Positions 3 through 24,544 of a DNA stretch of 33,081 bases are shown here, in pieces. Source of the DNA: Mailhella massiliensis (lineage in GTDB: Bacteria > Desulfobacterota > Desulfovibrionia > Desulfovibrionales > Desulfovibrionaceae); the NCBI RefSeq assembly GCF_900155525.1, contig NZ_LT706931.1:1-33081 (forward strand), read 5' to 3'. The notes beneath the pieces are model-generated. The model searched no databases. It had not been told where the DNA came from and was given only the letters and a program-made list of their open reading frames with translations. Position numbers and translations under genes: made by a program. The number at the start of each line of letters is the position of its first letter. Within the stretch, counting starts at the first letter, position 1.

Positions 3-134
3 GAACAGCGCAACGGGCGCATTATCCGCCAGGGCAACCTGTTCTATGAGCGCGACCCGGAACACTTCTCCGTGGGCATTTACAACTATGCCACCAAACA
101 GACGTATGACGCCCGGATGTGGCAGACTATTTAG
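3..134 (+). pseudogene. SNF2 helicase/N12-class DNA methylase, fragment upstream of the insertion
   Basis: This is the end of an open frame that enters from outside the window and stops at 132-134. The residues EQRNGRIIRQGN match SNF2/superfamily-2 helicase motif VI (QRxGRxxRQG). The following TYDARMWQTI is a conserved tail segment of the very large helicase-methylase proteins found on phages, plasmids and conjugative elements. The frame ends in TAG four bases after the 17-bp repeat at 114-130. The missing continuation (RMWQTIEYKAAAIEQFRKGD) is found in phase at 10931 onward. I read this as one gene split by a 10.8-kb insertion. The family includes the phage P1 DarB-type antirestriction proteins; whether this truncated product keeps any activity is unknown. 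Confidence 0.85.
114..130 (+). repeat. attL core, 17-bp direct repeat
   Basis: The sequence cggatgtggcagactat recurs at 10931-10947 as cggatgtggcagaccat (16 of 17 identical). The repeat encodes the RMWQTI codons of the split helicase gene. A P4-type integrase starts 250 bp inside it. Removing one repeat and the intervening DNA restores the reading frame. This is the expected arrangement for a tyrosine-recombinase attachment site. Confidence 0.85.
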
Positions 135-235
135 GTATCCATGAATCCAAGTAAGTTTATACTATTTTGATTTTATTATAGAAAAATTTGATTAGTGTGC
201 TATAAAGTCCAACAAGGAAGCCTTGCATCGTCAAA

Positions 236-358
236 TTTTGCGGGTATAACAGAAGGTATCGCGGCCACGATACACAGAAGCAACAGACAGGATACCCACA
301 CAAGAAAACGGCGGAAGCAATTCCATGAAATTATTGGAAAACGCTGATACCCGCAAAA
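236..358. promoter_or_regulatory. Cluster of GGTATC/GATACC motifs, candidate integrase arm sites
   Basis: Between attL and the integrase start lie several copies of a GGGTAT/ATACCC motif. ttttgcgggtat at 236-247 is a perfect 12-bp inverted match to 347-358. GTATCG/CGATAC form an inverted pair at 256-261 and 268-273, and gataccc occurs at 291-297. Two further copies lie just inside attR (10851-10856 and 10863-10869). Repeated short motifs flanking both cores are typical of arm-type binding sites for the integrase or its directionality factor. They could also autoregulate the int promoter. Confidence 0.55.
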
Positions 359-379
359 CTGAACAGACGGAGCAATAGC

Positions 380-1573
380 ATGTTAACCGATACCTTTCTC
401 AGAACCCTGAAGCCTGCCGACAGACCCAAAAAGTACGCCGACGGCGGCGGGCTGTTTATCTATGTATCCACAACCGGAAGCAAGTTGTGGCGTATGGCGT
501 ACCGCTTCAACATGAAAAGCAAGCTCCTCAGTTTCGGGGAGTATCCCCTTGTTTCCCTGAAAGAGGCAAGGGAACAACGCGACGAGGCAAAAAAGCTGCT
601 GGCAAAGGATATTGACCCCGGCCAGCACAAAAAGGAACTTCGGGCGGCCCGCATCGCCGAGGAAGCCAACACATTCAGGGCGGTCGCCCTTGAATGGTAT
701 GAGACGCAGACAACACACAATACTCCCGCCCACCGTCGCAGGCTTATGTTCAATCTGGAAAAATACCTGTTCCCCTCCCTTGGGCGAAAGGCCATAACAA
801 ATATTGAAGCGCAAGACCTGCTGGCCATCAGTAAGCCTCTTGAAGTCGAATCGACATGGATTTCCCACAGAGTGGTGCAAATCTGCGGAAAAATCTTTCG
901 CTACGCCATAGCCAGCGGCAAACTCAAGCATAATATCACGGCTGACCTGCGCGGCGCATTGCGTCCCATCCCCACCAGACACCATGCCGGGCTGACAGCC
1001 CCGCTGGAAGTAGGGAAACTGCTTCTCGATCTGGATAATTTCACAGGTTTTTTCCAGACGCATTGCGCCTTGCGCCTGCTTCCCTTGACCTTTGTGCGGG
1101 CCACGGAATTACGGCGGGCGGAATGGAAGGAAATCGACTTCGAGGACAAGCTGTGGCGCATCCCGGCGGAGCGGATGAAAATGCGCACGCCCCATTATGT
1201 TCCGCTTTCGGAACAGGCGCTTGCCATCTTTCGTTCCCTTCACGGCGTAACAGGCGAAGGGAAATATATTTTTCCGGGCACCCGTGGCAATGGAAACGTC
1301 ATCAGCCCGTCAACCATGCTGAACGCGCTTCGCTTCATGGGATACAGGAGAGACGTAATGTGCATCCACGGTTTCCGCACTATGGCCTCCACACTTCTCA
1401 ACGAGCTTGGCTATAACCGGGACTGGATAGAACGCCAGCTCGCCCATCAGGAACGGAACGGCGTCCGGGATGCGTATAACTGCGCCCAATATCTGCCGCA
1501 ACGCCGGAAGATGATGCAGGAGTACGCCGACTATCTGGACACATTACGCGAAAAGGCGCGACAGGCAGCATAA
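380..1573 (+). CDS. int: P4-family tyrosine recombinase (integrase)
   Basis: This 397-residue protein has the layout of P4/DUF4102 integrases. An N-terminal arm-binding domain (LTDTFLRTLKPADRPKKYADGGGLFIYV) is followed by a SAM-like core-binding domain around residues 95-185 and a catalytic domain. Visible catalytic residues are Arg240 in the TFVRATELR box, His330 and Arg333 in IHGFR, His356 in QLAHQ and the nucleophile Tyr366 in RDAYN. Length and residues look intact, so it is probably active. It sits next to attL and points into the element, as is usual for these islands. It would integrate and excise the 10.8-kb element at the helicase-gene target. A gene target inside another mobile element, rather than a tRNA, is unusual for the P4 class. 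Confidence 0.95.
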   Translation: MLTDTFLRTLKPADRPKKYADGGGLFIYVSTTGSKLWRMAYRFNMKSKLLSFGEYPLVSLKEAREQRDEAKKLLAKDIDPGQHKKELRAARIAEEANTFRAVALEWYETQTTHNTPAHRRRLMFNLEKYLFPSLGRKAITNIEAQDLLAISKPLEVESTWISHRVVQICGKIFRYAIASGKLKHNITADLRGALRPIPTRHHAGLTAPLEVGKLLLDLDNFTGFFQTHCALRLLPLTFVRATELRRAEWKEIDFEDKLWRIPAERMKMRTPHYVPLSEQALAIFRSLHGVTGEGKYIFPGTRGNGNVISPSTMLNALRFMGYRRDVMCIHGFRTMASTLLNELGYNRDWIERQLAHQERNGVRDAYNCAQYLPQRRKMMQEYADYLDTLREKARQAA

Positions 1574-1590
1574 AAGGCAAGACACGCCCC

Positions 1591-1637
1591 CGGCCCTGTT
1601 CCAGAGATTCCTCCCTGAGAGCAGGGCCGATTTTCTT
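1591..1637 (+). terminator. Probable terminator after the integrase
   Basis: CGGCCCTG (1591-1598) pairs with CAGGGCCG (1622-1629) across a 23-nt loop, followed by attttctt. It begins 17 bp after the integrase stop. The long loop lowers confidence. Confidence 0.45.
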
Positions 1638-1738
1638 GGCTATGATGAATTGTTATAAATTCATGAAAGCCATACTGAAACCGCAATATTTCCCAAAACC
1701 TGTCAAGAAATTTTTTTGTGTCGTATTCGTTCCGGCGG

Positions 1739-1757
1739 GACAATATCGGACATTGTC
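1739..1757. promoter_or_regulatory. Palindrome upstream of the AlpA-like gene
   Basis: GACAAT (1739-1744) and ATTGTC (1752-1757) form an inverted repeat with a 7-nt spacer, about 80 bp before the AlpA-like start. A second small hairpin, CATGC/GCATG, follows within 20 bp. It is a plausible operator, but no regulator can be assigned from sequence. Confidence 0.3.
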
Positions 1758-1834
1758 GGAGCATGCTTTCAGCATGGAACGACAGCGCCGCAAAAAACGG
1801 TGATATACGTTGAAAAACACTATGGAGGTTCCCC

Positions 1835-2059
1835 ATGTCAAATCTGGAAAACGAATCCCTTTTGCGCCTGCCCCAGGTACTGAAGATAATCCCCATCAGC
1901 AAAAGCGCGTGGTGGCAGGGCTGCAAGGATGGACGCTACCCCCAACCTATCAAGCTGGGACCGCGTACAACCGTATGGAAAGCGTCGGATATTTCGGCCT
2001 TCATGCGGCAGCTTTCCCGAAGCCCCGTTCAGAACGAAAGCAACGGAGTGAAGCAATAA
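1835..2059 (+). CDS. AlpA-family helix-turn-helix protein (excisionase-like)
   Basis: This 74-residue protein has the signature of the AlpA/MerR-like winged HTH family: LLRLPQVLKIIPISKSAWWQ, then a GRYPQPIKLGPRTTVW hairpin and the recognition part SDISAFMRQL. In P4-like islands such proteins act as recombination directionality factors or activate the integrase. ATG 1835 is preceded by GGAGG with a 6-nt spacer, which fixes the start. Its position between the integrase and the mobilisation genes fits control of excision. An alternative overlapping frame beginning at 1810 is a shadow. The family assignment is firm; the excisionase role is inference. Confidence 0.88.
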   Translation: MSNLENESLLRLPQVLKIIPISKSAWWQGCKDGRYPQPIKLGPRTTVWKASDISAFMRQLSRSPVQNESNGVKQ

Positions 2060-2091
2060 AATGAATACACCATCTGACCCATTCCCAAAAG

Positions 2092-2134
2092 GCGGCGCGA
2101 CCAAGGCATGAACCTTGACCGCGCCGCTTCTTTT
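2092..2134. terminator. Bidirectional terminator between convergent genes
   Basis: GCGGCGCG (2092-2099) pairs with CGCGCCGC (2120-2127). An inner CAAGG/CCTTG stem lies beyond a 2x2 internal loop, and TTCTTTTT follows. On the other strand a CCTTTT tract borders the stem. It lies between the AlpA-like gene and the convergent small gene, so it can end both transcripts. Confidence 0.75.
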
Positions 2135-2138
2135 TGTG

Positions 2139-2477
2139 TCATCCCCCGTCTGCGCTTCCCCATTCCCCGTTGCTGTTGCCTTCATGGGGCGGGGGCGTGT
2201 CTTCTTCGGCTCCATCCTGTTCCTTTACCGGCTTCAAGTCGGAAGCCTTGTCAAACAAAGCCTTCAACCTGGTGAGCGGAACCGATACCCCGACATCCGC
2301 GAGCAAGTCCCGTATATCCCGCAGCGTGTAGCCCTGCCGCATGGCCTTTCTAATGTCGTTGACCAAAAATTCCGCGACTTCCCCGCGTGTCTTCCCCGCC
2401 TCTTTCACCGGGAGGCTTCGGAGTTTTTTCCGGGCGGCCTCTATCTGTTCGAGCGTATAGCGTCGAGCCGTTGCCAT
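2139..2477 (-). CDS. Small mobilisation-associated protein, family shared with the outer element
   Basis: This is a 112-residue protein of unknown function. Residues 5-75 (YTLEQIEAARKKLRSLP, GKTRGEVAEFLVNDIRKAM, QGYTLRDIRDLLADVGV) align along their length with the 77-residue protein at 15440-15673. Both are divergent from a mobC gene across a candidate oriT. The helical, basic, HTH-like character suggests a DNA-binding accessory, perhaps a relaxosome component or a mob-operon regulator. The C-terminal 40 residues are acidic and Gly/Pro-rich and are absent from the paralogue. The start has a purine-rich AAGGAAGG upstream. I know no named family for it. Confidence 0.75.
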   Translation of the reverse strand: MATARRYTLEQIEAARKKLRSLPVKEAGKTRGEVAEFLVNDIRKAMRQGYTLRDIRDLLADVGVSVPLTRLKALFDKASDLKPVKEQDGAEEDTPPPHEGNSNGEWGSADGG

Positions 2478-2799
2478 AAAGCATCACCTTCCTTGTCGTA
2501 TTCCTTTCCGCTTACCACATTGAAAGCGTTATTCACAACAAAACTTCATGAACGGTAATGCTCTATAGAGCATTTCTGTAATGCATAGCAGACAAATATG
2601 GACAAATATTTTTTCTTATCTCCACATTCACAACTTATTTTTATTTTTGAAGTCAGCGTTTAAAGAAAAACAATACAGTCTTTTTGCTTTTTTCTCTGGC
2701 CTTCAAGGTAATTTTTCATCTATGCTTACGCCAAAAGCGGAAGCACAGCGCGGGCAATGCTTCCCCCAAAGCAATGAACGGCCGTTCCCAAAACCGCCG
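2478..2799. other. Intergenic region with a perfect 18-bp palindrome
   Basis: No gene is credible here. AATGCTCTATAGAGCATT at 2557-2574 is a perfect palindrome about 80 bp upstream of the minus-strand small gene, so it is a candidate operator. At 2591-2609 gacaaatat is repeated in tandem with a 10-bp period, placing both copies on the same helical face. The rest is AT-rich spacer leading into the candidate oriT. Confidence 0.5.
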
Positions 2800-2900
2800 G
2801 GAGTTCTTCTTTACAGGATGGTAGCTGTCTGACAACAGCTAACATCCTGCCAAAGGCTTCGCCTCTGGACTCCCGCAGAGCGTTCGGCGCTGCGCTTCTC
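2800..2900 (+). other. Candidate oriT of the inner element
   Basis: An imperfect inverted repeat has arms at 2814-2828 and 2835-2849 (14 of 15 bases paired, 6-nt loop). It is followed by cctctggactcccg (2862-2875) and cggcgctgcgcttctc (2885-2900), and preceded by ggagttcttc (2800-2809). The same blocks occur in the same order, over the same ~101 bp, upstream of the second mobC (15260-15360, minus orientation). Conserved noncoding DNA beside mobC/mobA with a stem-loop is the classic oriT arrangement of MOBP elements. The nick position cannot be read from sequence; the conserved cctctggactcccg block is the likeliest region. Confidence 0.65.
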
Positions 2901-2927
2901 ACGCTCTCAAAAAGGCAGGAAAGGCAG

Positions 2928-3251
2928 ATGGAAAAGCGTAAGGCGACAAGCAGATTACAGAGGCGGCGGACGCTCAGACTTACCGCCGAGGAAGAGAATA
3001 GATTGACTCGGCAGGCCGCCACCGCCGGAATCTCCGTTTCCGAGTACATGCGGCGGCTGTTCTTCGGCGGCAGGCCCATCATCGCCAGAACGGACGACCA
3101 GACCATCCGGGAACTGCGGCGGCTTGGGGGCCTGCTCAAGCATCATTTCGAGGTGGTAAAGCGGGCAGAAAATCCCGCCACCCTTTCGGAACTGGACGCC
3201 GCCTTACGGGAAATCCGGCGAGCCATCGAAGCCCTGAGCGAGAAACAATGA
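2928..3251 (+). CDS. mobC: MobC-like relaxosome accessory protein
   Basis: This 107-residue basic protein has a ribbon-helix-helix-like N-terminus (LRLTAEEENRLTRQAATAGISVSEYMRRLFFGG) and the MobC segment IRELRRLGGLLKHHFEVV. MobC proteins bind oriT and help the relaxase melt and nick DNA. The stop overlaps the relaxase start (ATG 3248 against a stop ending at 3251), so the two are translationally coupled. The protein at 14859-15239 is a close paralogue sharing YxRRxFFGGRP, IRELRRxGGLLKHxFE and the overall length. The start at 2928 has GGAAAGG just upstream. Confidence 0.88.
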   Translation: MEKRKATSRLQRRRTLRLTAEEENRLTRQAATAGISVSEYMRRLFFGGRPIIARTDDQTIRELRRLGGLLKHHFEVVKRAENPATLSELDAALREIRRAIEALSEKQ

Positions 3252-4867
3252 TTGTCAAAAAACTCAAGCGTACCAGCTTCAAAAAGTCCAAGGCCGTCAT
3301 GATTGGCGGTCTGGTGGACTATATTCTTGCCGAACACGACGACAGGGGCAAGGACAAGCTCGCCTATGCCGGAAGCAGAAACTTTCTGACAACAACTGTT
3401 GCCGCTCAGAAAAGGGAGATGATTTCCCTTGCCGAGGAATCCATCCAGAGCAAAATGCCGGTCACGCACTGGATTCTGTCATGGCAGGAAAACGAACAAC
3501 CGACCAGTGAACAGGTGGACGAGGCGGTCAGTCTCTTTCTCCGTGGAATGGACCTTGCCGAACACCAGACAATTTACGCCCTGCACAAGAACACGGGTAA
3601 TTATCACCTCCATATTGCCGTGAACCGGACGCATCCCTACACGCAGAAAGTCATTCAGCCGCACCGGGGATTCGACATCAACGAGGCGCATAAAATAGTG
3701 ACGGAAATTGAACACCGGCAGGGATGGGCACCGCAGATGAACGCCCGCTATCGCGTCAATGAACAGGGCCATGTGGTCAAGAATCTCCAGCGGCGGGAAG
3801 GACTAAAGCCCAAGCCAAAGGCGGAAGACTTTGAAAACGCCACCGGAGAAAAATCGGCCATGCGCATTGTGCAGGAGCGTGCCCATGCCGTCATTCAGAA
3901 CGCATCATGTTGGGAAGAGCTTCACGCCGGGCTGGACACGGTGGGGCTGCGTTTCGTCCGCAAGGGTTCCGGCGCGGTGATTTTCGTGGGAGACACGGCA
4001 ATCAAGGCGTCCAGCGTGGACAGGAATTTTTCTCTATCCAAACTCTCCAAACGGCTTGGAGAGTTCAAACCCAGCTATTATTCCGAACGGGCATTCAGGA
4101 AGCCCGCTCCGGAGCCGGTCAGTCACGTTTGCCGAGAGGAGTGGCGGGAGTATCAGAAGGAACGGCGGAGGCAGGAAGAGGTGAAGCATAACGCCAGAGA
4201 AAGGCGAGAGGAAGAACGGGAAGCACTGGAACAGCGTCAGCGGGAACGCCGGGAAGCGACCACGGCCCGCTTTGCCCGGCACGGGCTTTCCGTGCTGAAC
4301 ATTGCCCGGCATTGCCTGAAAGAACAGGAACGGGAGGAGAAAGCGGCGTTGCGGGACAGGCAGGCTCAATCAGAAACACCGGAACAGCTCCCGCGCTTCA
4401 AGTACTGGCTGGGCAAACGCAATCCGTATCTCGCCAATCTCTGGCGTTTCCGCAAACGAATCGCTCCCGGCGTGGAGGTCAGGCAACGCGAGTTCCCCAA
4501 GGTGGGCATGCTGGCTTCCTCGTATGCCGCTTACAGGGAAATGGTGAAAAAACGGTTTCCTGAAAAAATGGATGAGTCACGGCTGGATGCGGCCATTGCC
4601 CTGTACATGCGTTGTGCCGGATATACAATGCAGGAGGTAGCCAACGAGCTGTACAGACACGCCCCCGCTCGCCCCCACGGGCAGAACCGTGATGAACGGA
4701 TAGACTACGGGCGCAGGGTGGTCTGGTACGCCTTTGGTACGGCGGGAGATATTGATATTGCCAATATCCAGCCCTCGTTGGAGCAGATTCAAAAATTTGA
4801 CAGAGAAGCCGATTCCATTACGCGAAAAGAAATGCAACACGACCGGTTCAGAATGCGTTTACGATAA
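3248..4867 (+). CDS. mobA: MOBP-family (TraI/MobA-type) relaxase
   Basis: This 539-residue relaxase would nick oriT and pilot single-stranded DNA through a helper type IV secretion system. The likely catalytic Tyr25 lies in GGLVDYI, and the metal-binding motif III is NYHLHIAVNR (His120 and His122) with His106 just before it. A coiled-coil, Arg/Glu-rich stretch spans about residues 290-370. The C-terminal domain (SRLDAAIALYMRCAGYTMQEVAN ... VVWYAFGTAGDIDIA) is shared with the outer relaxase. This protein lacks the roughly 180-residue RepB-primase-like domain present there. It ends in RMRLR. No coupling protein or secretion genes are in the element, so it is mobilizable rather than self-transmissible. 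Confidence 0.93.
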   Translation: MIVKKLKRTSFKKSKAVMIGGLVDYILAEHDDRGKDKLAYAGSRNFLTTTVAAQKREMISLAEESIQSKMPVTHWILSWQENEQPTSEQVDEAVSLFLRGMDLAEHQTIYALHKNTGNYHLHIAVNRTHPYTQKVIQPHRGFDINEAHKIVTEIEHRQGWAPQMNARYRVNEQGHVVKNLQRREGLKPKPKAEDFENATGEKSAMRIVQERAHAVIQNASCWEELHAGLDTVGLRFVRKGSGAVIFVGDTAIKASSVDRNFSLSKLSKRLGEFKPSYYSERAFRKPAPEPVSHVCREEWREYQKERRRQEEVKHNARERREEEREALEQRQRERREATTARFARHGLSVLNIARHCLKEQEREEKAALRDRQAQSETPEQLPRFKYWLGKRNPYLANLWRFRKRIAPGVEVRQREFPKVGMLASSYAAYREMVKKRFPEKMDESRLDAAIALYMRCAGYTMQEVANELYRHAPARPHGQNRDERIDYGRRVVWYAFGTAGDIDIANIQPSLEQIQKFDREADSITRKEMQHDRFRMRLR

Positions 4868-5030
4868 GTTGCAAGATATGACAGCACCAAATATTTTTAA
4901 TGAATAATATAAAAATGTGAAACAAATTTCGTCAGTTTATTCAGATAGTTTGGCAATAAAATGCCATATTGAATTTTTTTCAGAAAATTATTATTGAAAA
5001 CAATAACTACAGATAACCAACGAGATATTC

Positions 5031-5669
5031 ATGACCACAACACACTCCACCGATTCCGCGTATCGAGGAAAAGGCCGTCCACGTGCCTTTGACCGTGAAC
5101 AGGCGCTGCACAGGGCGCTGGAAGTCTTTTGGCGACACGGGTATGCGCCCACCTCGGTAGCGGAATTGTGTAAGGCTATGGAAATAAAGCCTCCCAGCCT
5201 GTATGCCACCTTCGGCAATAAAGCCTCTCTTTTTCTTGAGGCTCTTCGGTATTACGAAAGTAGGTATTGGGACGCGCCAGCCAAACGGTTTATGAAGGAG
5301 CCTGATGTATACACGGCGGTTGCAAATTTTTTTAGTGAATCCGCAACAATACTGCTCTCCCCAGAAACGCCATGCGGCTGTATGGTCGTGCTTGCTGCCA
5401 TCAATATTGCTGAAGAAGAAAAAGAAATTATCGAATCCGTGCGTGAACTCAGACTTGCCACAAAAAAAATGTTTGCCGACAGGCTCAGGCAGGCTATCCA
5501 CGATGCGCAGATACCTCCGGATACGGATGTTCCCGCCTTGGCCGGAGCGCTTAATACCCTGCTTGAAGGCTTGTCCATTCAGGCCAGAGACGGCCTTTTT
5601 CAATCTGAGTTGAAGGCTATTGCCGCCCACGCGGTGCGTATGCTGCCCCTACATTTTTGCGAGGCATAG
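5031..5669 (+). CDS. TetR/AcrR-family repressor of the cargo operon
   Basis: This 212-residue protein begins with a TetR HTH: GRPRAFDREQALHRALEVFW, then TSVAELCKAMEIKPPSLYATFGNK. An all-helical ligand domain with conserved Cys residues (ETPCGCMVVLA) follows, as in the YxaF/AcuR-like C-terminal type. It precedes the reductase operon, and a 10-bp-arm palindrome lies in the spacer of a promoter right after it (5711-5741). This fits a ligand-responsive repressor of the downstream genes. Related regulators respond to reactive enals, acrylate-like molecules or thiol-reactive compounds; the inducer here is not known. Confidence 0.9.
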   Translation: MTTTHSTDSAYRGKGRPRAFDREQALHRALEVFWRHGYAPTSVAELCKAMEIKPPSLYATFGNKASLFLEALRYYESRYWDAPAKRFMKEPDVYTAVANFFSESATILLSPETPCGCMVVLAAINIAEEEKEIIESVRELRLATKKMFADRLRQAIHDAQIPPDTDVPALAGALNTLLEGLSIQARDGLFQSELKAIAAHAVRMLPLHFCEA

Positions 5670-5710
5670 CTGTTTCTTCGCCAAGCAGATTAAGAAGTGG
5701 GGGAACACTC

Positions 5711-5742
5711 TTGACATTTTTTTTAGTAATCACTAAAAAAAT
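5711..5742 (+). promoter_or_regulatory. Cargo promoter with embedded TetR-type operator
   Basis: A consensus -35 box TTGACA is at 5711-5716. A 17-bp spacer puts a weak -10 (taaaaa) at 5734. The palindrome TTTTTTTAGT aatc ACTAAAAAAA (arms 5718-5727 and 5732-5741) fills the spacer and overlaps the -10. Bound repressor would block RNA polymerase directly. It lies between the TetR gene and the radical SAM gene. Confidence 0.6.
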
Positions 5743-5784
5743 AATCAAACAGCATTTTGACAGATGAAAAAGGGGATGCTTCAC

Positions 5785-6675
5785 ATGGAATTTACCGAAC
5801 AACCTATGCGCCCCCCACAGGAGGCTCATTCATTCCTGCCGCGGGCAACGCAGGGCTGCACCTATAACGGGTGCCGTTTTTGCTATGTATCGAGGGGCTA
5901 CCCCTTCATGGCGGTCACGCCCGACCAGTTGGAGCGGGAAATTCTGGCTCAAAAACAGTTTTTCCCCGACGATACTCCCATTTATATGACCGGCTCCAAC
6001 CCTTTTGCCCTGCCCGCCGAAAAACTGAAAACGTATCTTGCCGTGCTGCGCAAGCATTTCCCTCACTTTGCACGCGTAAGCATGCAAAGCCGTATTAACG
6101 ACATTGCGGGCAAGAACATGGCAGAGCTGCGTGAACTTTACGGTCTTGGGCTGAGTCATCTCTACATCGGCACGGAAAACGGCAATGATGCCGTGCTCAC
6201 GCTCATGAACAAGGGACATTCCGCTTCCGAAACTGTGGAGCAACTGCTGCGGCTGGATGAGGCGGGAATAACGTATACCACGTTCTATATTATCGGCATG
6301 GGCGGCAAGGGAATGGGAGTTGCCAGCGGTGAAGCCACGGCACTGATGTTCAATCAGACGCACCCGCAGCGCATTACCACGACGGGCATGACGGTCTTTC
6401 CGCATACGCCACTGGCGGAAATGAAAGAACGACATGCATTCATAGAGGCATCGGAACGGGAGAAGATAGAAGAGCTTCAGGCATTTCTGAAAGGCCTGAC
6501 AATTGATACCTTTTATGATGGCATTCATTACCTGAACCCGCTCAACTACCGTTTTGCCAATAATGACGCAGAAGCAAAACGCCGTGCGCTGGAAGACATT
6601 GACGAAGTTCTGCGCTCCTATTCCGATGAGGAGCTGGAAAAAATGGTCTGTCGTCATCTTAAACACTCTTTGTAG
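5785..6675 (+). CDS. Radical SAM protein (GCTxNxCxFC family)
   Basis: This is a cytoplasmic radical SAM enzyme of about 296 residues. The cluster motif reads TQGCTYNGCRFC, a CX4CX2C spacing seen in a family whose members begin with RPPxEA and a GCxxNxCxFC segment; RPPQEAHSFL is present here. The SAM-binding MTGSNPF, GTENGND and IGMGG segments follow. The substrate is unknown and no SPASM or B12 domain is visible. ATG 5785 is preferred because AAAAGGGG precedes it by 9 nt; ATG 5764 has no Shine-Dalgarno and 5776 sits right against the purines. It is the first gene behind the TetR-controlled promoter. A reductive or maturation role for the neighbours is only a guess. Confidence 0.85.
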   Translation: MEFTEQPMRPPQEAHSFLPRATQGCTYNGCRFCYVSRGYPFMAVTPDQLEREILAQKQFFPDDTPIYMTGSNPFALPAEKLKTYLAVLRKHFPHFARVSMQSRINDIAGKNMAELRELYGLGLSHLYIGTENGNDAVLTLMNKGHSASETVEQLLRLDEAGITYTTFYIIGMGGKGMGVASGEATALMFNQTHPQRITTTGMTVFPHTPLAEMKERHAFIEASEREKIEELQAFLKGLTIDTFYDGIHYLNPLNYRFANNDAEAKRRALEDIDEVLRSYSDEELEKMVCRHLKHSL

Positions 6676-6681
6676 AACTAG

Positions 6682-6708
6682 GTCAGTTTTTTCTTCAAAA
6701 AAACTGAC
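6682..6708 (+). other. Intercistronic hairpin
   Basis: GTCAGTTTTTT (6682-6692) pairs with AAAAAAACTGAC (6697-6708) around a CTTC loop. There is no T-run after the stem, so it is unlikely to be a strong terminator. It more likely affects message stability or processing between the radical SAM gene and the flavoprotein gene. Confidence 0.5.
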
Positions 6709-6755
6709 ATTAGCTCCCATTATGGCAACAATATTTACCAAACCAGGAGGAAACC

Positions 6756-7310
6756 ATGAGCAAAAACATCATTATCCTTAACGGAAGCCCCCGCTTGAAA
6801 GGCAATACGGCCATGTTATGCGATGCCTTTACCGAAGGCGCAAAGAGTGTCGGTCATACCGTTACCCGTTTTGATTTGCAGAAAATGGACATCCACGGCT
6901 GTCTGGGTTGTGTAAAAGGCGGTAAGGACACCGCCAGCCCCTGTGTACAGAAGGACGACATGGCAAAAATCTACCCCGTATACAAAGAAGCCGACATCGT
7001 TATCCTCGCTTCTCCCATGTACTACTGGGGAATATCCGGCCAGTTGAAAACAGCGTTTGACCGTCTTTTCGCCGTTGCCGAATGTAATCCCGGCTATGTA
7101 AATCCTAAAAAAGAATGTGCTCTTATTATGGCTGCTGAAGGTAACAGTGCAGATAACTGGAAACCTGTTATAGATTACTATCATGCCCTCCTCAGCTTTC
7201 TTGAATGGAAAGACCTGGGGCAGGTGCTGGCTGGCGGCGTATTTGATGCCGGAGCAGTGGCAGGTCAGCCTGTTGTGAAGGATGCCTTCAACTTCGGCGC
7301 ATCACTGTAA
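6756..7310 (+). CDS. NADPH-dependent FMN reductase-fold flavoprotein, cluster ligand missing
   Basis: This 184-residue protein has the flavodoxin-like fold of the NADPH-FMN reductase/iron-sulfur flavoprotein family. The FMN phosphate loop is LNGSPRLKGNT, and ASPMYYWGISGQLKTAFDR is the second flavin segment. Iron-sulfur members use CX2CX2CX5-7C. Here Cys49, Cys52 and Cys63 are present but the third position is Gly55, so a [4Fe-4S] cluster is unlikely and it is probably a plain FMN reductase or flavin carrier. The start is set by AGGAGG 7 bp upstream. It could feed reduced flavin to the ene reductase two genes downstream; that pairing is inference. Confidence 0.88.
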   Translation: MSKNIIILNGSPRLKGNTAMLCDAFTEGAKSVGHTVTRFDLQKMDIHGCLGCVKGGKDTASPCVQKDDMAKIYPVYKEADIVILASPMYYWGISGQLKTAFDRLFAVAECNPGYVNPKKECALIMAAEGNSADNWKPVIDYYHALLSFLEWKDLGQVLAGGVFDAGAVAGQPVVKDAFNFGASL

Positions 7311-7326
7311 AAAAGGAAGGGCGGAT

Positions 7327-8058
7327 ATGCACAAATCACAAAACTCCTCAGAAGAAGTTTCCTCTCGTCCCCGTCTTTCACGGCGCAGACTTTTCTTTGG
7401 AGCAGGTGCTGCCGCCCTTTTTGCCGCAGTGGGAGGCACACTATTCCGCTATTTCGTCTCTACTTCTCCCATGAAGGTGGAGTCTTTTATGACTCATGGT
7501 ACAGGGAAGAAAAAGCATATTCTTATCCTTACAGGAAGCTCAAGAGTGGGAGGGAATAGCGATCTTTTGGCGGAAGCCTTTGCCAAAGGCGCACTCGATA
7601 GCGGACATACCGTGGATATTTTTTCTACGGGAAAAATGCGCATGAGCGCCTGTTTACACTGCGAAGGATGTTGGAGTACCGGGACTCCCTGCGTACTTCA
7701 GGATAATTTTGAAAAGTTATGGCCGCTCCTTGAAAAAGCGGAACTTCTGGTCTTCTGCAGCCCTCTTTACTGGTACAACTTCAGCGGCCATATCAAATCC
7801 GCTATGGACAGGTTGTACCCCTACTCCAAAAAAGAAAAGCTGCGGGATCTGCCGATAAAAGAGGCAATGCTGCTCATGTGTGGTGAGAGTCTGTTTCCAC
7901 GCTCCTTTGCCGGTCCTGCGGAAGCCTACCGTCAGATGTTGGGACTCAAAGGATGGCAGGATAGAGGAAGGCTTTTTGTTACCGGAGTGCATGAGCAAAA
8001 TGCCATAAAGGGACATAAGGCTCTCGTTACAGCCGAGGAAATGGGACGAAACGTCTAA
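7327..8058 (+). CDS. Tat-exported iron-sulfur flavoprotein
   Basis: This 243-residue paralogue of the preceding gene has an N-terminal twin-arginine signal, RLSRRRLFFGAGAAALFAAV (residues 16-35), so the folded, cofactor-loaded protein would be exported. The mature part has LTGSSRVGGNS for FMN and Cys109, Cys112, Cys115 and Cys122 (CX2CX2CX6C), complete for a [4Fe-4S] cluster. ATG 7327 follows AAGGAAGG; the frame is open 45 bp further upstream, but that part overlaps the previous gene and would bury the signal peptide. Most iron-sulfur flavoproteins are cytosolic, so a Tat-targeted one is unusual. It suggests a periplasmic electron-transfer or reductase step whose electron donor is not encoded nearby. 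Confidence 0.85.
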   Translation: MHKSQNSSEEVSSRPRLSRRRLFFGAGAAALFAAVGGTLFRYFVSTSPMKVESFMTHGTGKKKHILILTGSSRVGGNSDLLAEAFAKGALDSGHTVDIFSTGKMRMSACLHCEGCWSTGTPCVLQDNFEKLWPLLEKAELLVFCSPLYWYNFSGHIKSAMDRLYPYSKKEKLRDLPIKEAMLLMCGESLFPRSFAGPAEAYRQMLGLKGWQDRGRLFVTGVHEQNAIKGHKALVTAEEMGRNV

Positions 8059-8097
8059 ATTTAAAAATCGAGACCAATCTCGAAAGGGGGTGTTTTC

Positions 8098-10071
8098 ATG
8101 CAGAATTATAAATACTTAGGAACGCCGTTTCAAATCGGCGACCTGACAATTAAAAATCGTTTCTGTATGGCTCCCATTGGCGGAGGACAGCATCACCTTC
8201 CCGGCGGCGGCCTGAAAGACGAAACAATACAATATCTGGTGGAGCGGGCCAGAGGCGGATTTGGTTTGATTTTTACCGGGGCATTGGCTGCGGATTATAC
8301 TGTTGACCCCTATACTGGTATTGGGCCTGCCATTCTGCAGAATCCGGACGCTTTCAAAATGACCGCATCAGAATTGAATGAACGGGCGACCGCCTATGGA
8401 ACAAAAATTTTTGCCCAGATCACTATGGGGCTGGGGCGCAATTATCCAAATCTTCCTGCCCCTTCGCCCGTTCATGTATTCCGCCATCCGGGAGAGGTTT
8501 CACCGGAGCTGACCCATGACCAGATTAAATCCAAAATCGACTCAATCATTAAGTCGGCAAAAATCGCAAAAGATTCCGGCTTTGCCGGTGTGGAAGTCCA
8601 TTCCATCCATTGGGGGTATCTCCTAGATCAGTTTGCCTTGTCCATGATGAACCGCCGTACGGATGAATATGGCGGCAGTCTGGAAAACCGCCTACGCGCC
8701 GCGAAGGAAATTCTGGAGGGTATCAAACAGGAATGCGGCAGCCATTATCCTGTCAGTATGCGGTTGGGCCTGAAAACCTTTGTAAAAGATTTTGAAAAGG
8801 CAACACTCACGGGTGAAGAAGAAGCCGGACGTCCCCTGGAAGAAGGTATTCAGATTGCAAAAATGTTGGAATCCTATGGCTATGACTGCCTGAGTGTGGA
8901 TACCGGCACCTATGATTCTTTTTATTACGCATGTCCACCCATGTATATGCCGAAAGGCTATCTTGTGGAAATGGCGGCAAAGGCCAAAGAAGCGGTGAAC
9001 ATTCCCATTCTTGCGGGCGGCCGGATGAACGACCCTGATATTGCCGAGGCAGCCATCCGTGATGGAAAAATCGACGCTGTCGTTATGGGGCGTGCCGCAC
9101 TGGCTGACCCGGAATATCCGAACAAGGTATTAACCGGACACACGGAACGTATCCGGCCCTGTATTGCCTGCAATCAGGGGTGCATTACCCGACTCCAGCA
9201 AGGGAAACAGCCCTCTTGTGCGGTCAACCCTACTGCCATGCGGGAACTTCGCTTTGCTATACGTCCCGCTGTACAGCCCAAAAAGGTACTTATTGTTGGC
9301 GGAGGCGTAGCTGGTATGGAAGCTGCGAGAGTTGCCGCTATGCGGGGGCATAAGGTTTCTTTGTACGAAAAAAATGAACAATTGGGAGGCAATCTGATTC
9401 CCGGCGGTTCGCACCGTTTCAAAAAAGAGGTCCGGGAACTGAACGCTTGGTATCGGAACGAACTGAACCTTCTACCGGTAGAAATCCATGCAGGAAAAGC
9501 TGTTACAGCAGAGCAGGTTAAGCATATGGGAGCAGATGTGATCATCCTAGCCGTTGGTTCTATTCCCATCATGCCGAACATTCCGGGAATGGACGATAAG
9601 AAGGTCATCGGGTGTGTGGAGGCTTTTGCACACCCGGAAAAAGTAGGACAGAGGGTAATCATCATTGGCGGTGGTTTGGTAGGTTGCGAGATGGCGCTGG
9701 ATTATGCTCAGGAGGGCAAAGAAGTTACTGTCGTTGAGGCATTGCCGAAGATTCTTTCCGCCGGGATTCCATCTCCTATTCCCAATGCACAGATGATTCC
9801 TGACCTGTTTGAATATTACCATGTAAATGTGCTGGAAAGACATAAACTTTCTGCCGTTGAAAACGGAAAAGCAATTTTGGAATACTGTGGACAGAGAAAG
9901 GAACTGGAAGCAGATTCCATTGTCATTGCCGTTGGATTCCGACCTGTGCAGGCTATGACGCAAGAGCTACGGAAGAATGGTTCTGTAGTCTATGAGATCG
10001 GTGACGGTCAACAGGTCAGCACGATTCTCCATGCTGTATGGGACGGTTATGAAGTCGGCAACAATATCTAA
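8098..10071 (+). CDS. Old yellow enzyme/2,4-dienoyl-CoA reductase-type ene reductase (BaiCD-like)
   Basis: This 657-residue, three-part enzyme starts with an FMN TIM barrel (residues 1-345, APIGGGQ start and HSIHWGYLLDQF active-site segment). A [4Fe-4S] site follows around 355-374 (CX2CX3CX11C), then FAD- and NAD(P)H-binding halves marked by VGGGVAGMEAA and IGGGLVGCEMA. This is the architecture of 2,4-dienoyl-CoA reductase, clostridial enoate reductases and BaiCD/BaiH, which reduce activated C=C bonds of enones or enoates. The HxxHxGYLLDQF form is the BaiCD/enoate-reductase type rather than the E. coli FadH type. The substrate cannot be fixed from sequence; bile-acid, steroid, cinnamate or dietary enone reduction are the main options. 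It appears intact. Confidence 0.93.
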   Translation: MQNYKYLGTPFQIGDLTIKNRFCMAPIGGGQHHLPGGGLKDETIQYLVERARGGFGLIFTGALAADYTVDPYTGIGPAILQNPDAFKMTASELNERATAYGTKIFAQITMGLGRNYPNLPAPSPVHVFRHPGEVSPELTHDQIKSKIDSIIKSAKIAKDSGFAGVEVHSIHWGYLLDQFALSMMNRRTDEYGGSLENRLRAAKEILEGIKQECGSHYPVSMRLGLKTFVKDFEKATLTGEEEAGRPLEEGIQIAKMLESYGYDCLSVDTGTYDSFYYACPPMYMPKGYLVEMAAKAKEAVNIPILAGGRMNDPDIAEAAIRDGKIDAVVMGRAALADPEYPNKVLTGHTERIRPCIACNQGCITRLQQGKQPSCAVNPTAMRELRFAIRPAVQPKKVLIVGGGVAGMEAARVAAMRGHKVSLYEKNEQLGGNLIPGGSHRFKKEVRELNAWYRNELNLLPVEIHAGKAVTAEQVKHMGADVIILAVGSIPIMPNIPGMDDKKVIGCVEAFAHPEKVGQRVIIIGGGLVGCEMALDYAQEGKEVTVVEALPKILSAGIPSPIPNAQMIPDLFEYYHVNVLERHKLSAVENGKAILEYCGQRKELEADSIVIAVGFRPVQAMTQELRKNGSVVYEIGDGQQVSTILHAVWDGYEVGNNI

Positions 10072-10136
10072 TTCCTATGGTATAAAGCAAAATGCTTTAT
10101 ATAAAAAGGTGTTATTATTACAAGGAGGTAATCACT

Positions 10137-10523
10137 ATGAGAGCGGAATTGAAAGAGTATCAGGCTGTAGAAGAAGCTGCGATGAAATTTGTCAAAAGCG
10201 TTGCTGAAGGCAACAGCAAGTACGCAAAGGAACTGTTTATTAATGAAGCAGTTCTGTTCGGCTACCTTGACGGTAAGCTGGAGCATGGCTCCATTGAGCA
10301 GTTCTATCACAATGTGGATACTGTTCCCGGTGGTGACAATTTCAAGGCTCGTATAGACGTTCTGCTATTAGAGGAAACACTGGCTGTTGTCCGTGTTCTT
10401 GAGCAGGGCTGGGGCAATCGCATTGATTTTACCGATGTGCTGCTCCTGCTGAAGATGAACGGTGAATGGAAGTGCGTGGCGAAAGCCTATAACCAGAACT
10501 CCAATACCATTCAGAAAAAATAA
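10137..10523 (+). CDS. NTF2/SnoaL-like fold protein (lumazine-binding-like)
   Basis: This 128-residue protein has the cone-shaped alpha/beta barrel pattern of the NTF2-like superfamily, closest in feel to Lumazine_bd_2/SnoaL-like proteins. There is an N-terminal helix (EAAMKFVKSVAEGNSKYAKELF), the segment GSIEQFYHNVDTVPGG, and strands ending in WKCVAKAYNQ. Start 10137 follows a perfect AAGGAGGT 8 bp upstream; an upstream start at 10092 has none. Such small proteins act as isomerases, dehydratases or ligand binders; BaiE in bile-acid operons has this fold and also sits beside BaiCD-type enzymes. It is the last cargo gene before a terminator. Catalytic residues cannot be assigned. Confidence 0.82.
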   Translation: MRAELKEYQAVEEAAMKFVKSVAEGNSKYAKELFINEAVLFGYLDGKLEHGSIEQFYHNVDTVPGGDNFKARIDVLLLEETLAVVRVLEQGWGNRIDFTDVLLLLKMNGEWKCVAKAYNQNSNTIQKK

Positions 10524-10590
10524 AATGCCATGTGTGTAGTCAGATCGTGCAGGCCCCTCTAACTACCTAATGCACTAAAAAAACGAAAAG

Positions 10591-10628
10591 CCGCGATTTC
10601 CGTTTCACGGATTTCGCGGTTTTCTTTT
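10591..10628 (+). terminator. Terminator of the inner-element cargo operon
   Basis: CCGCGATTTCCG (10591-10602) and CGGATTTCGCGG (10608-10619) form a stem with a 2x2 internal loop and a TTTCA loop, followed by TTTTCTTTT. It lies 67 bp after the NTF2-like stop and is the only good terminator in this gap. Confidence 0.7.
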
Positions 10629-10930
10629 GGGACTATCCCCAAATATCTAGCCACAAACATAATCATCCAGCAGTCATAGAGGGTTATTTGGTCAGTAAAA
10701 ATAGATTATTTATATACGTTATTACATAAAGACTTTTATAAAGAAGCCTGTTCCATAAAGAATGACGCGAGCTTCTTCGTTTTCACGCCACATCTTTCGA
10801 GAGCAGTCCAAAGCCGTCCAGAAAATTTTTTTTGAATCTTTCAAAAATGTGGGTATTTCGAGGGGTATCAGAGGTAATATATAAAAATTTTATATACTAT
10901 TTCAATATATTACAATGTAGACAAAAAGTT
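10629..10930. other. Right-end noncoding segment of the inner element
   Basis: No convincing gene is present. The segment holds GGGTAT motifs at 10851-10856 and 10863-10869 matching those near attL. A 19-bp AT palindrome with 9-bp arms lies at 10878-10896. An open frame starts at TTG 10832 and runs into the helicase fragment. The repeated motifs are likely integrase arm sites at the attR side. Confidence 0.55.
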
Positions 10931-10947
10931 CGGATGTGGCAGACCAT
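10931..10947 (+). repeat. attR core, 17-bp direct repeat
   Basis: cggatgtggcagaccat matches the attL copy at 114-130 at 16 of 17 positions. The RMWQTI codons of the helicase gene resume here and continue into EYKAAAIEQF. The distance between copies, 10,817 bp, is the size of the inner element. Confidence 0.85.
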
Positions 10948-12526
10948 AGAGTACAAGGCGGCTGCCATCGAGCAGTTCCGCAAGGGCGATCTGCTCCAGC
11001 GCGTTATCGACGACGTGCAGAGCGAGGCCGCCAACGCCGCCGAAATGAAGGCCGCAGCTTCAGGCAATCCGCTGATTCTCATGCAGGTTCAGCTTGCCGC
11101 AGACCTTCGCAAGCTGGAAGCCCTGTATTCCCAGCATCAGCGGGGACAGCATCGTCTGCGCGACAGGCTGAAGTGGCTCAACGGAACCGATGAGCGTCTT
11201 GCCAAGGCGGAAAGCGCCTACGCCGCCAACATCCGGCACCGGGACAGCCACACCCATATCATCAAGGAAAAAGACAAGGAAAAAATCCGTATAGAACTCT
11301 TTGCGGGAGACAAGATGCTGACGGACAGAGACGGCGAAAAAATAAAGGATATTCTGCTCGGCTGCGTGAAGGAGATCACGCGCAATGCCGGAGCCAGGGT
11401 ACTGTTCGGCTCTTATCGGGGCTTCGCCATGCACCTTGAACGCTATGCCCAGTCCTTCGGCGGCAAGGAGGGGTTCAGAATCGTTGTGACAGGTACGGAT
11501 GGACAGGAGTTCAAGCCGGACAATCTCGTCTATCTCTTTGACGCCAAACTCAGTCTTTCCGGTCTGTTCCAGCGCATGGACAACTTCCTGGCCAAAGGTT
11601 TCGATGAAGCCATGAAAAAATTTCGGGAAACCTGCCGTCATGAAAAGGCGGAACTGGAAACAACCAGAGAAGCGCTCGGCAGGGAGTTTCCCCAGAAGGA
11701 GGAACTGACCCTGGCGCGGGAAAATCATAGCGCTATCATCCGGGAGTTGCAGCGTATGCAGGATGACGCGAGCTATGTTTCCCACTGGACACCAAAGACT
11801 TCCGACGCCGGGGCCGACACGACTCCGGCAGAAGAGACCAGGCAGGAAACTCCCGACGCCCCCTTCTCCATGGCAGACGCGGCGCCGAAAGACCACCGTG
11901 TCTGTACGCTTACCTTTGGTGAGCAGGGGGACCAGACGGAGTACGCCGTCACGCACAGTCAGGTCGGTTACCTTCTGAACCGTTCCCATGTGCGTGAAAC
12001 TACGAGGTGGCCCATCCATTGCCTGTACGACGACAATCTCTGGCACTCCCTTGTGAAAGGCCCTCCCGGTGTCCGCTTCAAGCAGTTTGAGAGCAGAGAA
12101 GACGCCCTGAATTTCGCACGCCAGGATGCCGCACTGCTCGGTTTTGCCGATGCCATGACGCATCCTGAGAAGGATCTCTCCGCAGCTTCGGCAACGGAGG
12201 GCGACTCCTATCGCCAAGCCATGGAAAAAGCCGGATTCCGGCCTTCCGGCATGGATTTTTACGGCAAACAGGAACACGAGTTGAAGGTTGAAACGGGGGA
12301 CGGCGGAATATTTGAGCTGAGAATATTCCAGACGGAAGAGGGTAAAGTCGGCCTGCGTGTTCAGTATGAAAAAGACCACATCATCAACGGTGCGCGAACC
12401 GTCCATGCCTCTTTTGATACGCTCAAGGAAACTCTGGACTATGCCAGCATCTATAAGAAAGTGGCGGAAACACAAAACATCACTGCGCCTCCTGTGCAGG
12501 AGACTTTCTCCATGCGAATGAGATAA
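10934..12526 (+). pseudogene. SNF2 helicase/N12-class DNA methylase, fragment downstream of the insertion
   Basis: From the attR core onward the frame encodes about 530 residues of the C-terminal portion of a large helicase-methylase. The segment MWQTIEYKAAAIEQFRKGDLLQR directly continues the fragment at 3-134. Helical coiled-coil segments follow, then two unassigned alpha/beta regions (from about CTLTFGEQG, and from SYRQAMEKAGFRPSG). It ends in FSMRMR. The frame is open back to TTG 10832 inside the inserted element, so a hybrid product is possible, but no Shine-Dalgarno supports it. In the uninterrupted state this protein would probably modify DNA or protect it from restriction on entry to a new cell. 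I treat it as disrupted rather than as a stand-alone gene. Confidence 0.82.
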
Positions 12527-14896: not shown

Positions 14897-15239
14897 GGCC
14901 GGGCACTCCAAGATGCTCAATGGCGGAAATCAGAAGCCCCAACGCCCGTTCCTGCCGCTCAAGCATATCCGCACCGGCACCTGACTGCCGGAGCGTTTCA
15001 AAGTTGTGCTTGAGCAGGCCCCCGATACGGCGAAGTTCCCGAATCATCATGGCGTCGGTGTGGGCTATGAGCGGGCGTCCTCCGAAAAACCTCCGGCGCA
15101 GATACGCGGAAACGGACAGCCCCGCCATATCCGCCTGCTGTTCAAGACGCGCTTTTTCCTCCGGGGAAACCCGCACTGTAACCCAGAGTTTTGATGAGGA
15201 AACACCGCCGCCTTCCGCATTGCTCTTTTTGCCTTTCAT
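14859..15239 (-). CDS. mobC: MobC-like relaxosome protein (outer element)
   Basis: This 126-residue protein has an N-terminal RHH-like DNA-binding part (LWVTVRVSPEEKARLEQQAD, AGLSVSAYLRRRFFGG) and the MobC helix IRELRRIGGLLKHNFETL. It is the counterpart of the inner-element MobC. The coding region overlaps the start of the relaxase gene by 38 bp, implying coupled translation. AAAGG lies 8 bp upstream of the start. The candidate oriT lies immediately upstream, on the opposite side from the relaxase, as in the inner element. Confidence 0.88.
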   Translation of the reverse strand: MKGKKSNAEGGGVSSSKLWVTVRVSPEEKARLEQQADMAGLSVSAYLRRRFFGGRPLIAHTDAMMIRELRRIGGLLKHNFETLRQSGAGADMLERQERALGLLISAIEHLGVPGHDSEESQTGNRR

Positions 15240-15439: not shown

Positions 15440-15673
15440 ATGGAAAAACGTGGAACTTTGCGACCGGAACAAATCAAGTTGGCTCAACGACTGCTCACCG
15501 AGTTACCTGAAAAAGACCACAGAAAAACTCGGGAGGAAGCAGCTGAAATATTAGAAAAAGATTTCCAAAAAGCTTTTCAAAAAGGATATTCCCCAAAAGA
15601 CATCTGTATCATATTAAAAAATGCAGGCATTATTATTCCTGCATATCTTATAAAAAAATTTTTGAAGGTGTGA
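15440..15673 (+). CDS. Small mobilisation-associated protein (outer element copy)
   Basis: This 77-residue basic protein is related over its whole length to residues 5-75 of the protein at 2139-2477 (shared LPxK, KTRxExAE, F/IxKAxxxGYxxxDI, xLK/DxG). It lies divergent to mobC with the candidate oriT between them, exactly as in the inner element. It lacks the acidic tail of the other copy. Base composition is much more AT-rich than the mob genes. AAAAGGAAAATTT precedes the ATG. Function is unknown; a relaxosome or regulatory DNA-binding role is inferred only from position and helical basic character. Confidence 0.75.
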   Translation: MEKRGTLRPEQIKLAQRLLTELPEKDHRKTREEAAEILEKDFQKAFQKGYSPKDICIILKNAGIIIPAYLIKKFLKV

Positions 15674-15740
15674 TTTGGTATAATTAAAAATAAATATAAT
15701 TCACATTAATCAATATAAACATCGCCTATTCTTAATTACA

Positions 15741-15757
15741 ACTGAGCGAATTAGGCA
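15741..15757 (+). promoter_or_regulatory. Candidate AraC operator, copy 1
   Basis: actgagcgaattaggca occurs about 100 bp upstream of the DUF362 gene. It matches actgagcgaaataggca at 17839-17855 at 16 of 17 positions. Both sites precede transcription units around the AraC gene. A TATGAT -10-like box lies at 15825-15830 with no good -35, as expected for an activator-dependent promoter. GCCTA/TAGGC with a following T-run also allows a weak terminator reading. Confidence 0.55.
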
Positions 15758-15854
15758 TTTTTTACAGCGAATCCGGCATACATTTTGAGCTCCCCCGGTG
15801 GTAAAGTTATATCTCGTAATCTCTTATGATTTCACTTAATTCAGGAGAATTTTC

Positions 15855-16832: not shown

Positions 16833-16862
16833 AACATATAGCTCCATTGAGGGATAGGGTAT

Positions 16863-17762: not shown

Positions 17763-17782
17763 CATACTATTTTAACTATTTT

Positions 17783-17825
17783 AAAAGCGGGAAGCCTTAT
17801 TTTTTCAAGGCTTCTCGCTTTTTTA
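17783..17825 (+). terminator. Terminator after the AraC gene
   Basis: aaaagcgggaagcctt (17783-17798) pairs with aaggcttctcgctttt (17807-17822) with a single G-T wobble, an 8-nt loop and a T-rich end. It separates the DUF362-AraC unit from the long enzyme operon. Confidence 0.85.
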
Positions 17826-17838
17826 TTTTGCCGACAGC

Positions 17839-24534: not shown

Positions 24535-24544
24535 GGAGAAAATC

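What the first reader, a model, noticed from the sequence alone, without database searches (positions are those of the whole stretch)
114..10947. A mobilizable element inserted inside the helicase/methylase gene of another mobilizable element
Seen: the frame ending at 134 and the frame at 10931 join exactly at RMWQTI through a 17-bp repeat (16/17 identical) 10,817 bp apart. An intact P4-type integrase lies just inside the left copy. The split gene sits next to a second relaxase/mobC module. Known: some streptococcal mobilizable elements use SNF2 genes of ICEs as targets. Inference: here a P4-type integrase in a probable Desulfovibrionaceae uses the same kind of target, giving a nested element that may travel on its host or disarm its antirestriction gene.
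Basis: partly seen in the sequence, partly recalled or inferred. Interest (0 to 1): 0.85.

Follow-up and report, generated by a model that had tools for sequence, protein, structure and literature searches.

The report
Hitchhiker element nested in conjugative element
A 10.8-kb hitchhiking mobile element in a Desulfovibrio-family bacterium sits inside one gene of a larger self-transferring element, and relatives in the same bacterial family have hit the same few genes of that larger element repeatedly, much as unrelated hitchhikers do in streptococci.

Summary
Window 114-130 and 10931-10947 are a 16/17 repeat 10,817 bp apart. The same genome has an uninterrupted gene copy with one such site: left flank 127/127 identical, right flank 96%. 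27 copies in 22 of 288 family genomes run through the site. Window 131-10930 is an integrative mobilizable element (IME): P4-type integrase, NikA-like protein, MOBP relaxase, redox cargo.

The host is not another mobilizable element but the right part of a roughly 50-kb conjugative element (ICE) with type IVB-like secretion genes. Its family is a landing ground: SNF2 site A is split in 5 genomes, this one included; a coupling-protein gene (site C) and a small secretion-cluster gene (site D) are split too. Three other right ends share site B. Integrases of sites A, B and C group together.

Against strict specificity: a 99%-identical integrase lies beside a chemotaxis-type gene, and sister IMEs lie elsewhere. 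Streptococci have such nesting with serine integrases; eight paper searches showed me no tyrosine-integrase case in these two genes.

The parts
3..134 (+). 3' end of the left half of the SNF2/Eco57I-methylase gene; reads into a stop just past the repeat. Starts at the contig edge.
   Evidence: the intact homologue in G138 carries SNF2-rel_dom and Eco57I domains
114..130 (+). attL core, CGGATGTGGCAGACTAT (site B)
242..351 (.). GGGTAT/GATACC repeats, probable left integrase arm sites
   Evidence: role inferred from P4-type integrases (recalled)
380..1573 (+). P4-type tyrosine integrase, 397 aa
   Evidence: Pfam Arm-DNA-bind_3, Phage_int_M, Phage_integrase; tree
1834..2058 (+). 74-aa ORF that looks AlpA/excisionase-like to me (recalled); no family hit
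   Evidence: no match; only a weak ThiJ_like match (E 0.2)
2139..2477 (-). conserved 112-aa ORF of the IME backbone, function unknown
   Evidence: 77-86% identical in four other IMEs (L160, L188, L191, C28 site D)
2928..3251 (+). NikA-like relaxosome accessory protein (mobC-like)
   Evidence: Pfam NikA-like
3248..4867 (+). MOBP-type relaxase, 539 aa
   Evidence: Pfam Relaxase and TraI_middle; NCBIfam TraI_MobP_relax, 255 bits over a cut-off of 250
5031..10523 (+). IME cargo: TetR-type regulator, radical SAM protein, two FMN-reductase-like proteins, Old Yellow Enzyme-type flavoenzyme (BaiCD hit below its cut-off), lumazine-binding-like protein
10851..10868 (+). paired right arm motif GGGTAT-N6-GGGTAT, starting 80 bp before the attR core (82, which counts two bases more)
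   Evidence: same place in other right ends
10931..10947 (+). attR core, CGGATGTGGCAGACCAT (site B)
10931..12526 (+). right half of the SNF2/methylase gene (about the last 530 of 2,220 residues)
12647..14920 (-). relaxase of the host ICE, with RepB primase domain
14859..15239 (-). NikA-like protein of the host ICE
15661..30490 (.). stretch with no nucleotide match of 150 bp or more in the ICE copies of G138 and G231: cargo of this ICE copy (mostly redox enzymes by my reading)
   Evidence: (gap between ICE-matching blocks)
30445..31745 (+). tyrosine recombinase near the right end of the host ICE, broken here into two frames
   Evidence: 391-aa ORF in G138

Best explanation
Window 131-10930 is an integrative mobilizable element that its own P4-type tyrosine integrase inserted, by recombination between a short core site on the element and the matching core in the SNF2/methylase gene of a conjugative element. 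Shown: the repeat, the empty site, integrase and relaxase genes without internal stops, the arm-like pair near the right end, and repeated occupation of the same and other sites in this ICE family. Inferred: the crossover lies in the first 14 bp of the repeat (attR has the empty site's C at position 15, attL has T); the element can excise by the reverse reaction; its relaxase nicks an own oriT and the element leaves through a type IVB-like apparatus supplied by an ICE, in trans, or rides inside the ICE in cis. The ICE family acts as carrier and nest: related integrases have diverged to hit different conserved genes of the same ICE (SNF2 sites A and B, coupling-protein site C); the site-D element has similar mobilization genes but a more distant integrase.
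For: 16/17 repeat; same-genome empty site with the 17 bp in one copy; 27 uninterrupted copies in 22 of 288 family genomes, counting rows of at least 75% identity. Right halves starting at the same codon in G155, G078 and G056, and the paired arm motif at 78-82 bp from the core in 4 of 4 site-B and 3 of 4 site-A right ends examined. Host ICE family: DotH/IcmK, TrbI, T4SS_TraI, T2SSE, DotM, TraG/TrwB-type, SLT and topoisomerase matches in G138. Site A split in G000-C28, G147, G237, G146 and G087 (in G147 and G087 the halves lie on separate contigs), plus a right half in G137. Site C: left halves in G137 and G243, hits that begin there in G221, G274 and G243; only the G243 right half was read at DNA level. 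Site D: C28 and two places in G243. Integrase identity: within site A 90-97%, within site C 90%, between sites A, B and C 44-61%. Group of 14 out of 48 rows, support 98/96.
Against: L052 (99% identical integrase over 285 aa) lies next to a gene that I read as a chemotaxis receptor, with no SNF2 right half in the stretch and without the window's right-end sequence; the SNF2 copies found in that genome run through site B. L052 is cut off inside the integrase, so its site is unresolved. IMEs with 82-84% identical relaxases sit beside tRNA-Ser (G146) and in stretches of G089 and G147 without ICE-backbone genes, though with other integrases. The three other site-B right ends have no integrase in view: G155 and G056 reach a contig end, and 60 kb of the G078 contig showed none. 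No circular form, transfer or activity was seen; the left flank is only 127 bp plus the repeat.
Confidence: 0.87

Rival explanations
1. Assembly or mixture artefact: contig C7 joins reads of two strains, and the apparent insertion is a chimera at a shared sequence.
For: The window begins at the contig edge; its first 127 bases are identical to C28 and then diverge. Genome contamination is given as 2.43%.
Against: The break falls exactly at a 16/17 repeat, not at a random place. Other genomes have right ends at the same codon with the same arm motif. The right flank differs from C28 at 50 of 1,600 positions compared without gaps, so it is a separate ICE copy.
Confidence: 0.06
2. The split was made by homologous recombination or a transposon, and the integrase is a passenger.
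For: Mobile DNA is common here; a transposase-like ORF (my reading) lies at 32.6 kb.
Against: The element has an integrase just inside one end, arm-like motifs inside both ends, a core repeat with a single mismatch, and no transposase match among the eleven ORFs of 131-10930 that were scanned.
Confidence: 0.04
3. The integrase has low or relaxed specificity; SNF2 site B is one of several sites, and the ICE association reflects the abundance of ICEs.
For: L052 lies beside a chemotaxis-type gene; 7 of 30 related integrase loci have a tRNA gene in the flank; sister IMEs lie at other places.
Against: Within each ICE-gene site the integrases are 90-97% alike and between sites A, B and C 44-61%. The integrases of these three sites form one group. 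Site-A breaks agree to within about ten codons in five genomes.
Confidence: 0.2

Closest known systems
Streptococcal IMEs in snf2, maff2 and traG of Tn5252-superfamily ICEs (tet(O) fragment in ICESp2905, IME_SsuNSUI084_SNF2 and others; PMC5357655, PMC5704250, PMC7168690; passages seen)
   Same: A mobilizable element inserted inside the SNF2-helicase/methylase gene or the coupling-protein gene of an ICE; several sites per ICE; decayed remnants; integrases mostly grouped by target
   Different: Those use serine integrases in Firmicutes. Here the integrases are P4-type tyrosine enzymes, the bacteria are Desulfovibrionaceae, and the ICE has a type IVB-like apparatus
Tn1806-like ICEs nested in snf2 of ICESa2603-family ICEs, shown by conjugation (PMC12942858; passages seen)
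   Same: Nested insertion in the snf2 gene of an ICE; the composite can transfer and the inner element can leave alone
   Different: The inner element is a full ICE with a triple serine integrase and a 4-bp repeat, in Streptococcus agalactiae
Tyrosine-integrase IMEs in oriT of Tn916- and ICESt3-related ICEs (PMC5704250; passage seen)
   Same: A tyrosine-integrase IME that targets an ICE
   Different: The target is the oriT nic site, not a protein gene; Streptococcus agalactiae
Tn6212 in Pseudomonas syringae ICEs (PMC10945833; passages seen)
   Same: An element with a XerC-type tyrosine integrase that its authors think may target ICE sequences, in a Gram-negative bacterium
   Different: Mobilization genes and an interrupted SNF2 or coupling-protein gene are not mentioned in the passages seen

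Membership tests
Integrative mobilizable element (IME) | own integrase with direct-repeat att sites | tested here: met
Integrative mobilizable element (IME) | relaxase and accessory protein but no own mating-pair apparatus | tested here: met
   Relaxase and NikA-like protein present; no secretion-system family among the eleven ORFs of 131-10930 that were scanned
Integrative mobilizable element (IME) | excision and transfer with a helper | not testable with these tools
   needs a circle PCR and a mating
ICE (host element) | conjugation module, integrase and relaxase | tested here: met
   In the related copy G138: DotH, TrbI, T4SS_TraI, T2SSE, DotM, TraG-type proteins and an integrase, and a homologue of the window's relaxase. 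Completeness of the apparatus and the ends of the ICE were not mapped; in the window's own copy only the right part is assembled
P4-type tyrosine integrase | N-terminal arm-binding, central and C-terminal catalytic domains | tested here: met
   PF13356, PF22022, PF00589 above cut-off; NCBIfam PRK09692 hit below its cut-off (243 of 434 bits)
Streptococcal SNF2-targeting IMEs (Tn5252 group) | serine integrase | tested here: not met
   The integrase is a tyrosine recombinase. It works like these elements but is not a member
Site-B specific integrase | close relatives also at SNF2 site B | tested here: inconclusive
   The only relative above 61% identity listed is L052, which is cut at its left end and lies beside a chemotaxis-type gene

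The most novel reading that the evidence does not exclude
One clade of P4-type tyrosine integrases has specialised on the genes of one type IVB-like ICE family in Desulfovibrionaceae, changing target from one ICE gene to another (SNF2 site A, SNF2 site B, coupling-protein site C). It has thereby converged with the unrelated serine-integrase IMEs of streptococci on the same two kinds of ICE gene.
Probability: 0.55. Interest if true: 0.7.

Novelty: new variant of a known kind. Interest (0 to 1): 0.56.

Why it matters
If elements with unrelated recombinases in distant phyla keep choosing the SNF2/methylase and coupling-protein genes of ICEs, then these genes are preferred nests for reasons that can be tested: conserved target codons, no cost to the cell, access to a transfer apparatus, or control of the carrier. 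Related integrases with mapped targets in one ICE (A, B, C) also give a natural series for asking how tyrosine integrases change site. One of the nested elements (C28, site A) carries an ORF that I read as a ribosomal-protection-type GTPase, so nesting bears on how such genes move.

Tried and rejected
tRNA or tmRNA target: none in the window and none in L052. The flanks (up to 1.5 kb) of the 30 integrase loci showed no site-B core other than the window's own; those flanks were too short or my patterns too narrow to show sites A and C, which came out with longer stretches. The attempt to find the empty site of the L052 element through its chemotaxis-type flank failed, because such genes have many paralogues: 243 of 285 genomes matched. 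G103's partial SNF2 hit ends at a contig end. G017's right half begins about 11 codons upstream without the arm motif and was not counted as site B. SNF2 rows under 75% identity were not counted. Ungapped comparison of the last 60 bp of the right ends was not above shuffles (28 of 60 against a shuffle maximum of 34 for G155); only the gapped alignment and the arm spacing are informative, and that motif was written after looking at these sequences. In the integrase tree, matches of 250 residues or fewer were left out. Plasmid DNA search with the IME backbone: no match; integrase relatives are under 60% identical in the plasmid collection (21 records) and at most 37% in the virus collection (5 loci). 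The PADLOC scan gave only weak partial matches for the SNF2 protein.
Full report
OBSERVATION. The 17-bp repeat is real and rare in the window: two matches at up to 3 mismatches, against a shuffle mean of 0.10. The left frame ends ...YDARMWQTI-stop and the right frame resumes RMWQTIEYK.... The best test was inside the same genome. Contig C28 carries the gene continuous across the site, its two matches to the window overlap by exactly the 17 bp, the left flank is 127/127 identical, and the right flank is 96% identical over 1,671 bp. Among 288 genomes of the family, 27 gene copies in 22 genomes run through the site at 75% identity or more (one of them, G067, has a stop within the stretch; less similar rows were not counted).

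LIMIT. The window begins at base 1 of contig C7. The 127 identical bases followed by a mismatch inside the repeat look like an assembler k-mer overlap (the typical k value is recalled). No other copy of the left half was found in the assembly apart from C28's, so this copy's left half is probably collapsed onto C28.

THE INNER ELEMENT. Window 131-10930 encodes a P4-type integrase, a NikA-like protein, a MOBP-type relaxase and a redox cargo, but no secretion apparatus among the eleven ORFs scanned. Its backbone recurs with other cargo: L052 is 97% identical over 716-1878 and 89% over 1846-4797, and C28's third insert (L011) is 85% identical over 1853-4799. By anatomy this is an integrative mobilizable element; mobility was not tested.

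THE HOST ELEMENT. Comparison with G138 and G231 shows that window 10931-12601, 12638-15661 and 30490-31652 belong to the right part of a shared element of roughly 50 kb, whose ends I did not map. In G138 it encodes DotH/IcmK-like, TrbI, T4SS_TraI, T2SSE, DotM, TraG/TrwB-type, transglycosylase and topoisomerase proteins, an integrase and a 2,220-aa protein whose first 1,550 residues carry Eco57I-methylase and SNF2 domains. Several other large ORFs had no Pfam match.

THE ICE AS LANDING GROUND. Site A: the SNF2 gene is split between about residues 1355 and 1365 in C28 of this genome, G147, G237, G146 and G087, with a right half also in G137; in G147 and G087 the halves lie on different contigs. 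The C28 insert is about 17.2 kb, and all five elements have two tandem integrases just inside. Site B: besides the window, G155, G078 and G056 have right halves that begin at the same codon; G155 also has mobilization genes related to the window's upstream (mobC 68%, relaxase pieces 62-67%). Site C: the coupling-protein gene is split near residues 373-383. Left halves beside an integrase are in G137 and G243, and hits beginning there are in G221, G274 and G243, while 21 of 31 rows span the site. Only for G243 did I read both edges. Site D: a small gene without a Pfam match inside the secretion cluster is split in C28 (7,991 bp between cores) and in G243 (7,700 bp), with a further right half in G243. 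The window's own genome, as assembled, therefore carries three nested elements in two ICE copies (sites A and D on C28, site B on C7).

ARM SITES. A pair GGGTA-N-GGGTAT-like motif lies 82 bp from the core (as counted) in the window, G078, G056 and three site-A right ends, and 78 bp in G155; the C28 site-D end has one at about 79. It is absent in G237 (site A) and in G017. The pattern was written after seeing the sequences; the constant spacing is the stronger point.

INTEGRASES AND TARGETS. Within site A the two integrases are 91-97% and 90-96% identical, and within site C 90%; between sites A, B and C they are 44-61% identical. In a tree of 48 rows, the 14 integrases of sites A (both), B and C plus L052 form one group (98/96; midpoint root). 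Site-D integrases group apart, with one next to a tRNA-Ser gene. This suggests, but does not prove, a clade specialised on ICE genes.

EVIDENCE AGAINST. L052, a contig of an uncultured Desulfovibrio genome, has a 99% identical integrase over 285 aa, yet its right side is a gene that I read as a chemotaxis receptor (no family scan); the window's right-end sequence was not found in it and the contig starts inside the integrase. The SNF2 copies found in that genome run through site B (it is G283 in the family sample and G288 by locus). Of 11 places with relaxases at least 79% identical, 5 lie in ICE genes (window, C28, three in G243), 3 do not (G146 beside tRNA-Ser; G089 and G147 in stretches without ICE-backbone genes) and 3 are unresolved. 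Specificity of this very integrase for SNF2 is therefore likely but not settled.

MECHANISM. attR has the C of the empty site at position 15 and attL has T, so strand exchange probably fell within the first 14 bp (inference). In the homologues, the part left of site B keeps the methylase and SNF2 domains (residues 436-507 and 1084-1241 in G138) and ends near residue 1696. Site A cuts at about residue 1357, beyond the matched SNF2 domain but before the motif-VI-like stretch. Whether either truncated protein works is unknown. Transfer through an ICE apparatus is inferred from the presence of a relaxase and the lack of an apparatus.

KNOWN AND NEW. Streptococcal IMEs in snf2, maff2 and traG of Tn5252-type ICEs use serine integrases (PMC5357655, PMC5704250, PMC7168690; passages seen). 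Nested integration of a Tn1806-like ICE in snf2 has been shown by conjugation (PMC12942858; passages seen). A tyrosine-integrase element of Pseudomonas ICEs was suggested to target ICE sequences (PMC10945833; passages seen), and some tyrosine-integrase IMEs target ICE oriT (PMC5704250). Searches for a Desulfovibrio case, or a tyrosine-integrase case in SNF2 or coupling-protein genes, listed none that I recognised from titles and abstract starts; PMC12175345 mentions Desulfovibrio isolates but no such element in the passages seen. The library covers open-licence papers only.

VERDICT. New variant of a known kind.

Noticed in passing
G000 contig C28, about 38-55 kb (L009, L010): The site-A nested element of this genome carries two tandem integrases, a ParA-like ORF, an HsdM-like ORF and a ribosomal-protection-type (tet-like) GTPase ORF (last three names by my reading); the G138 ICE copy has a 72% identical GTPase ORF.
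   Followed up: partly
L163-L164 (G137 contig C8): A coupling-protein left half with a site-C integrase is followed, about 14 kb on, by the SNF2 right half from site A, as if the ICE segment between two nested elements had been deleted.
   Followed up: partly
window 30445-31745: The tyrosine recombinase near the ICE's right end is broken into two frames here; G138 has a 391-aa ORF without stops.
   Followed up: no
window 5031-10523 and 15661-30490: Inner element and host ICE both carry flavin and redox enzymes, a shared cargo theme; the inner element's were scanned, the ICE's are my reading of the ORFs.
   Followed up: no
window 3248-4867 and 12647-14920: The inner element's relaxase and the ICE's relaxase are related: sister relaxases of the inner element are about 53-56% identical to the ICE's over some 400 residues, hinting that the IME took its mobilization genes from such an ICE.
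   Followed up: no
window 32529-33081 and onward: A transposase-like ORF (my reading) in a stretch shared at 98% with contig C28 and, for 553 bp, with G138.
   Followed up: no
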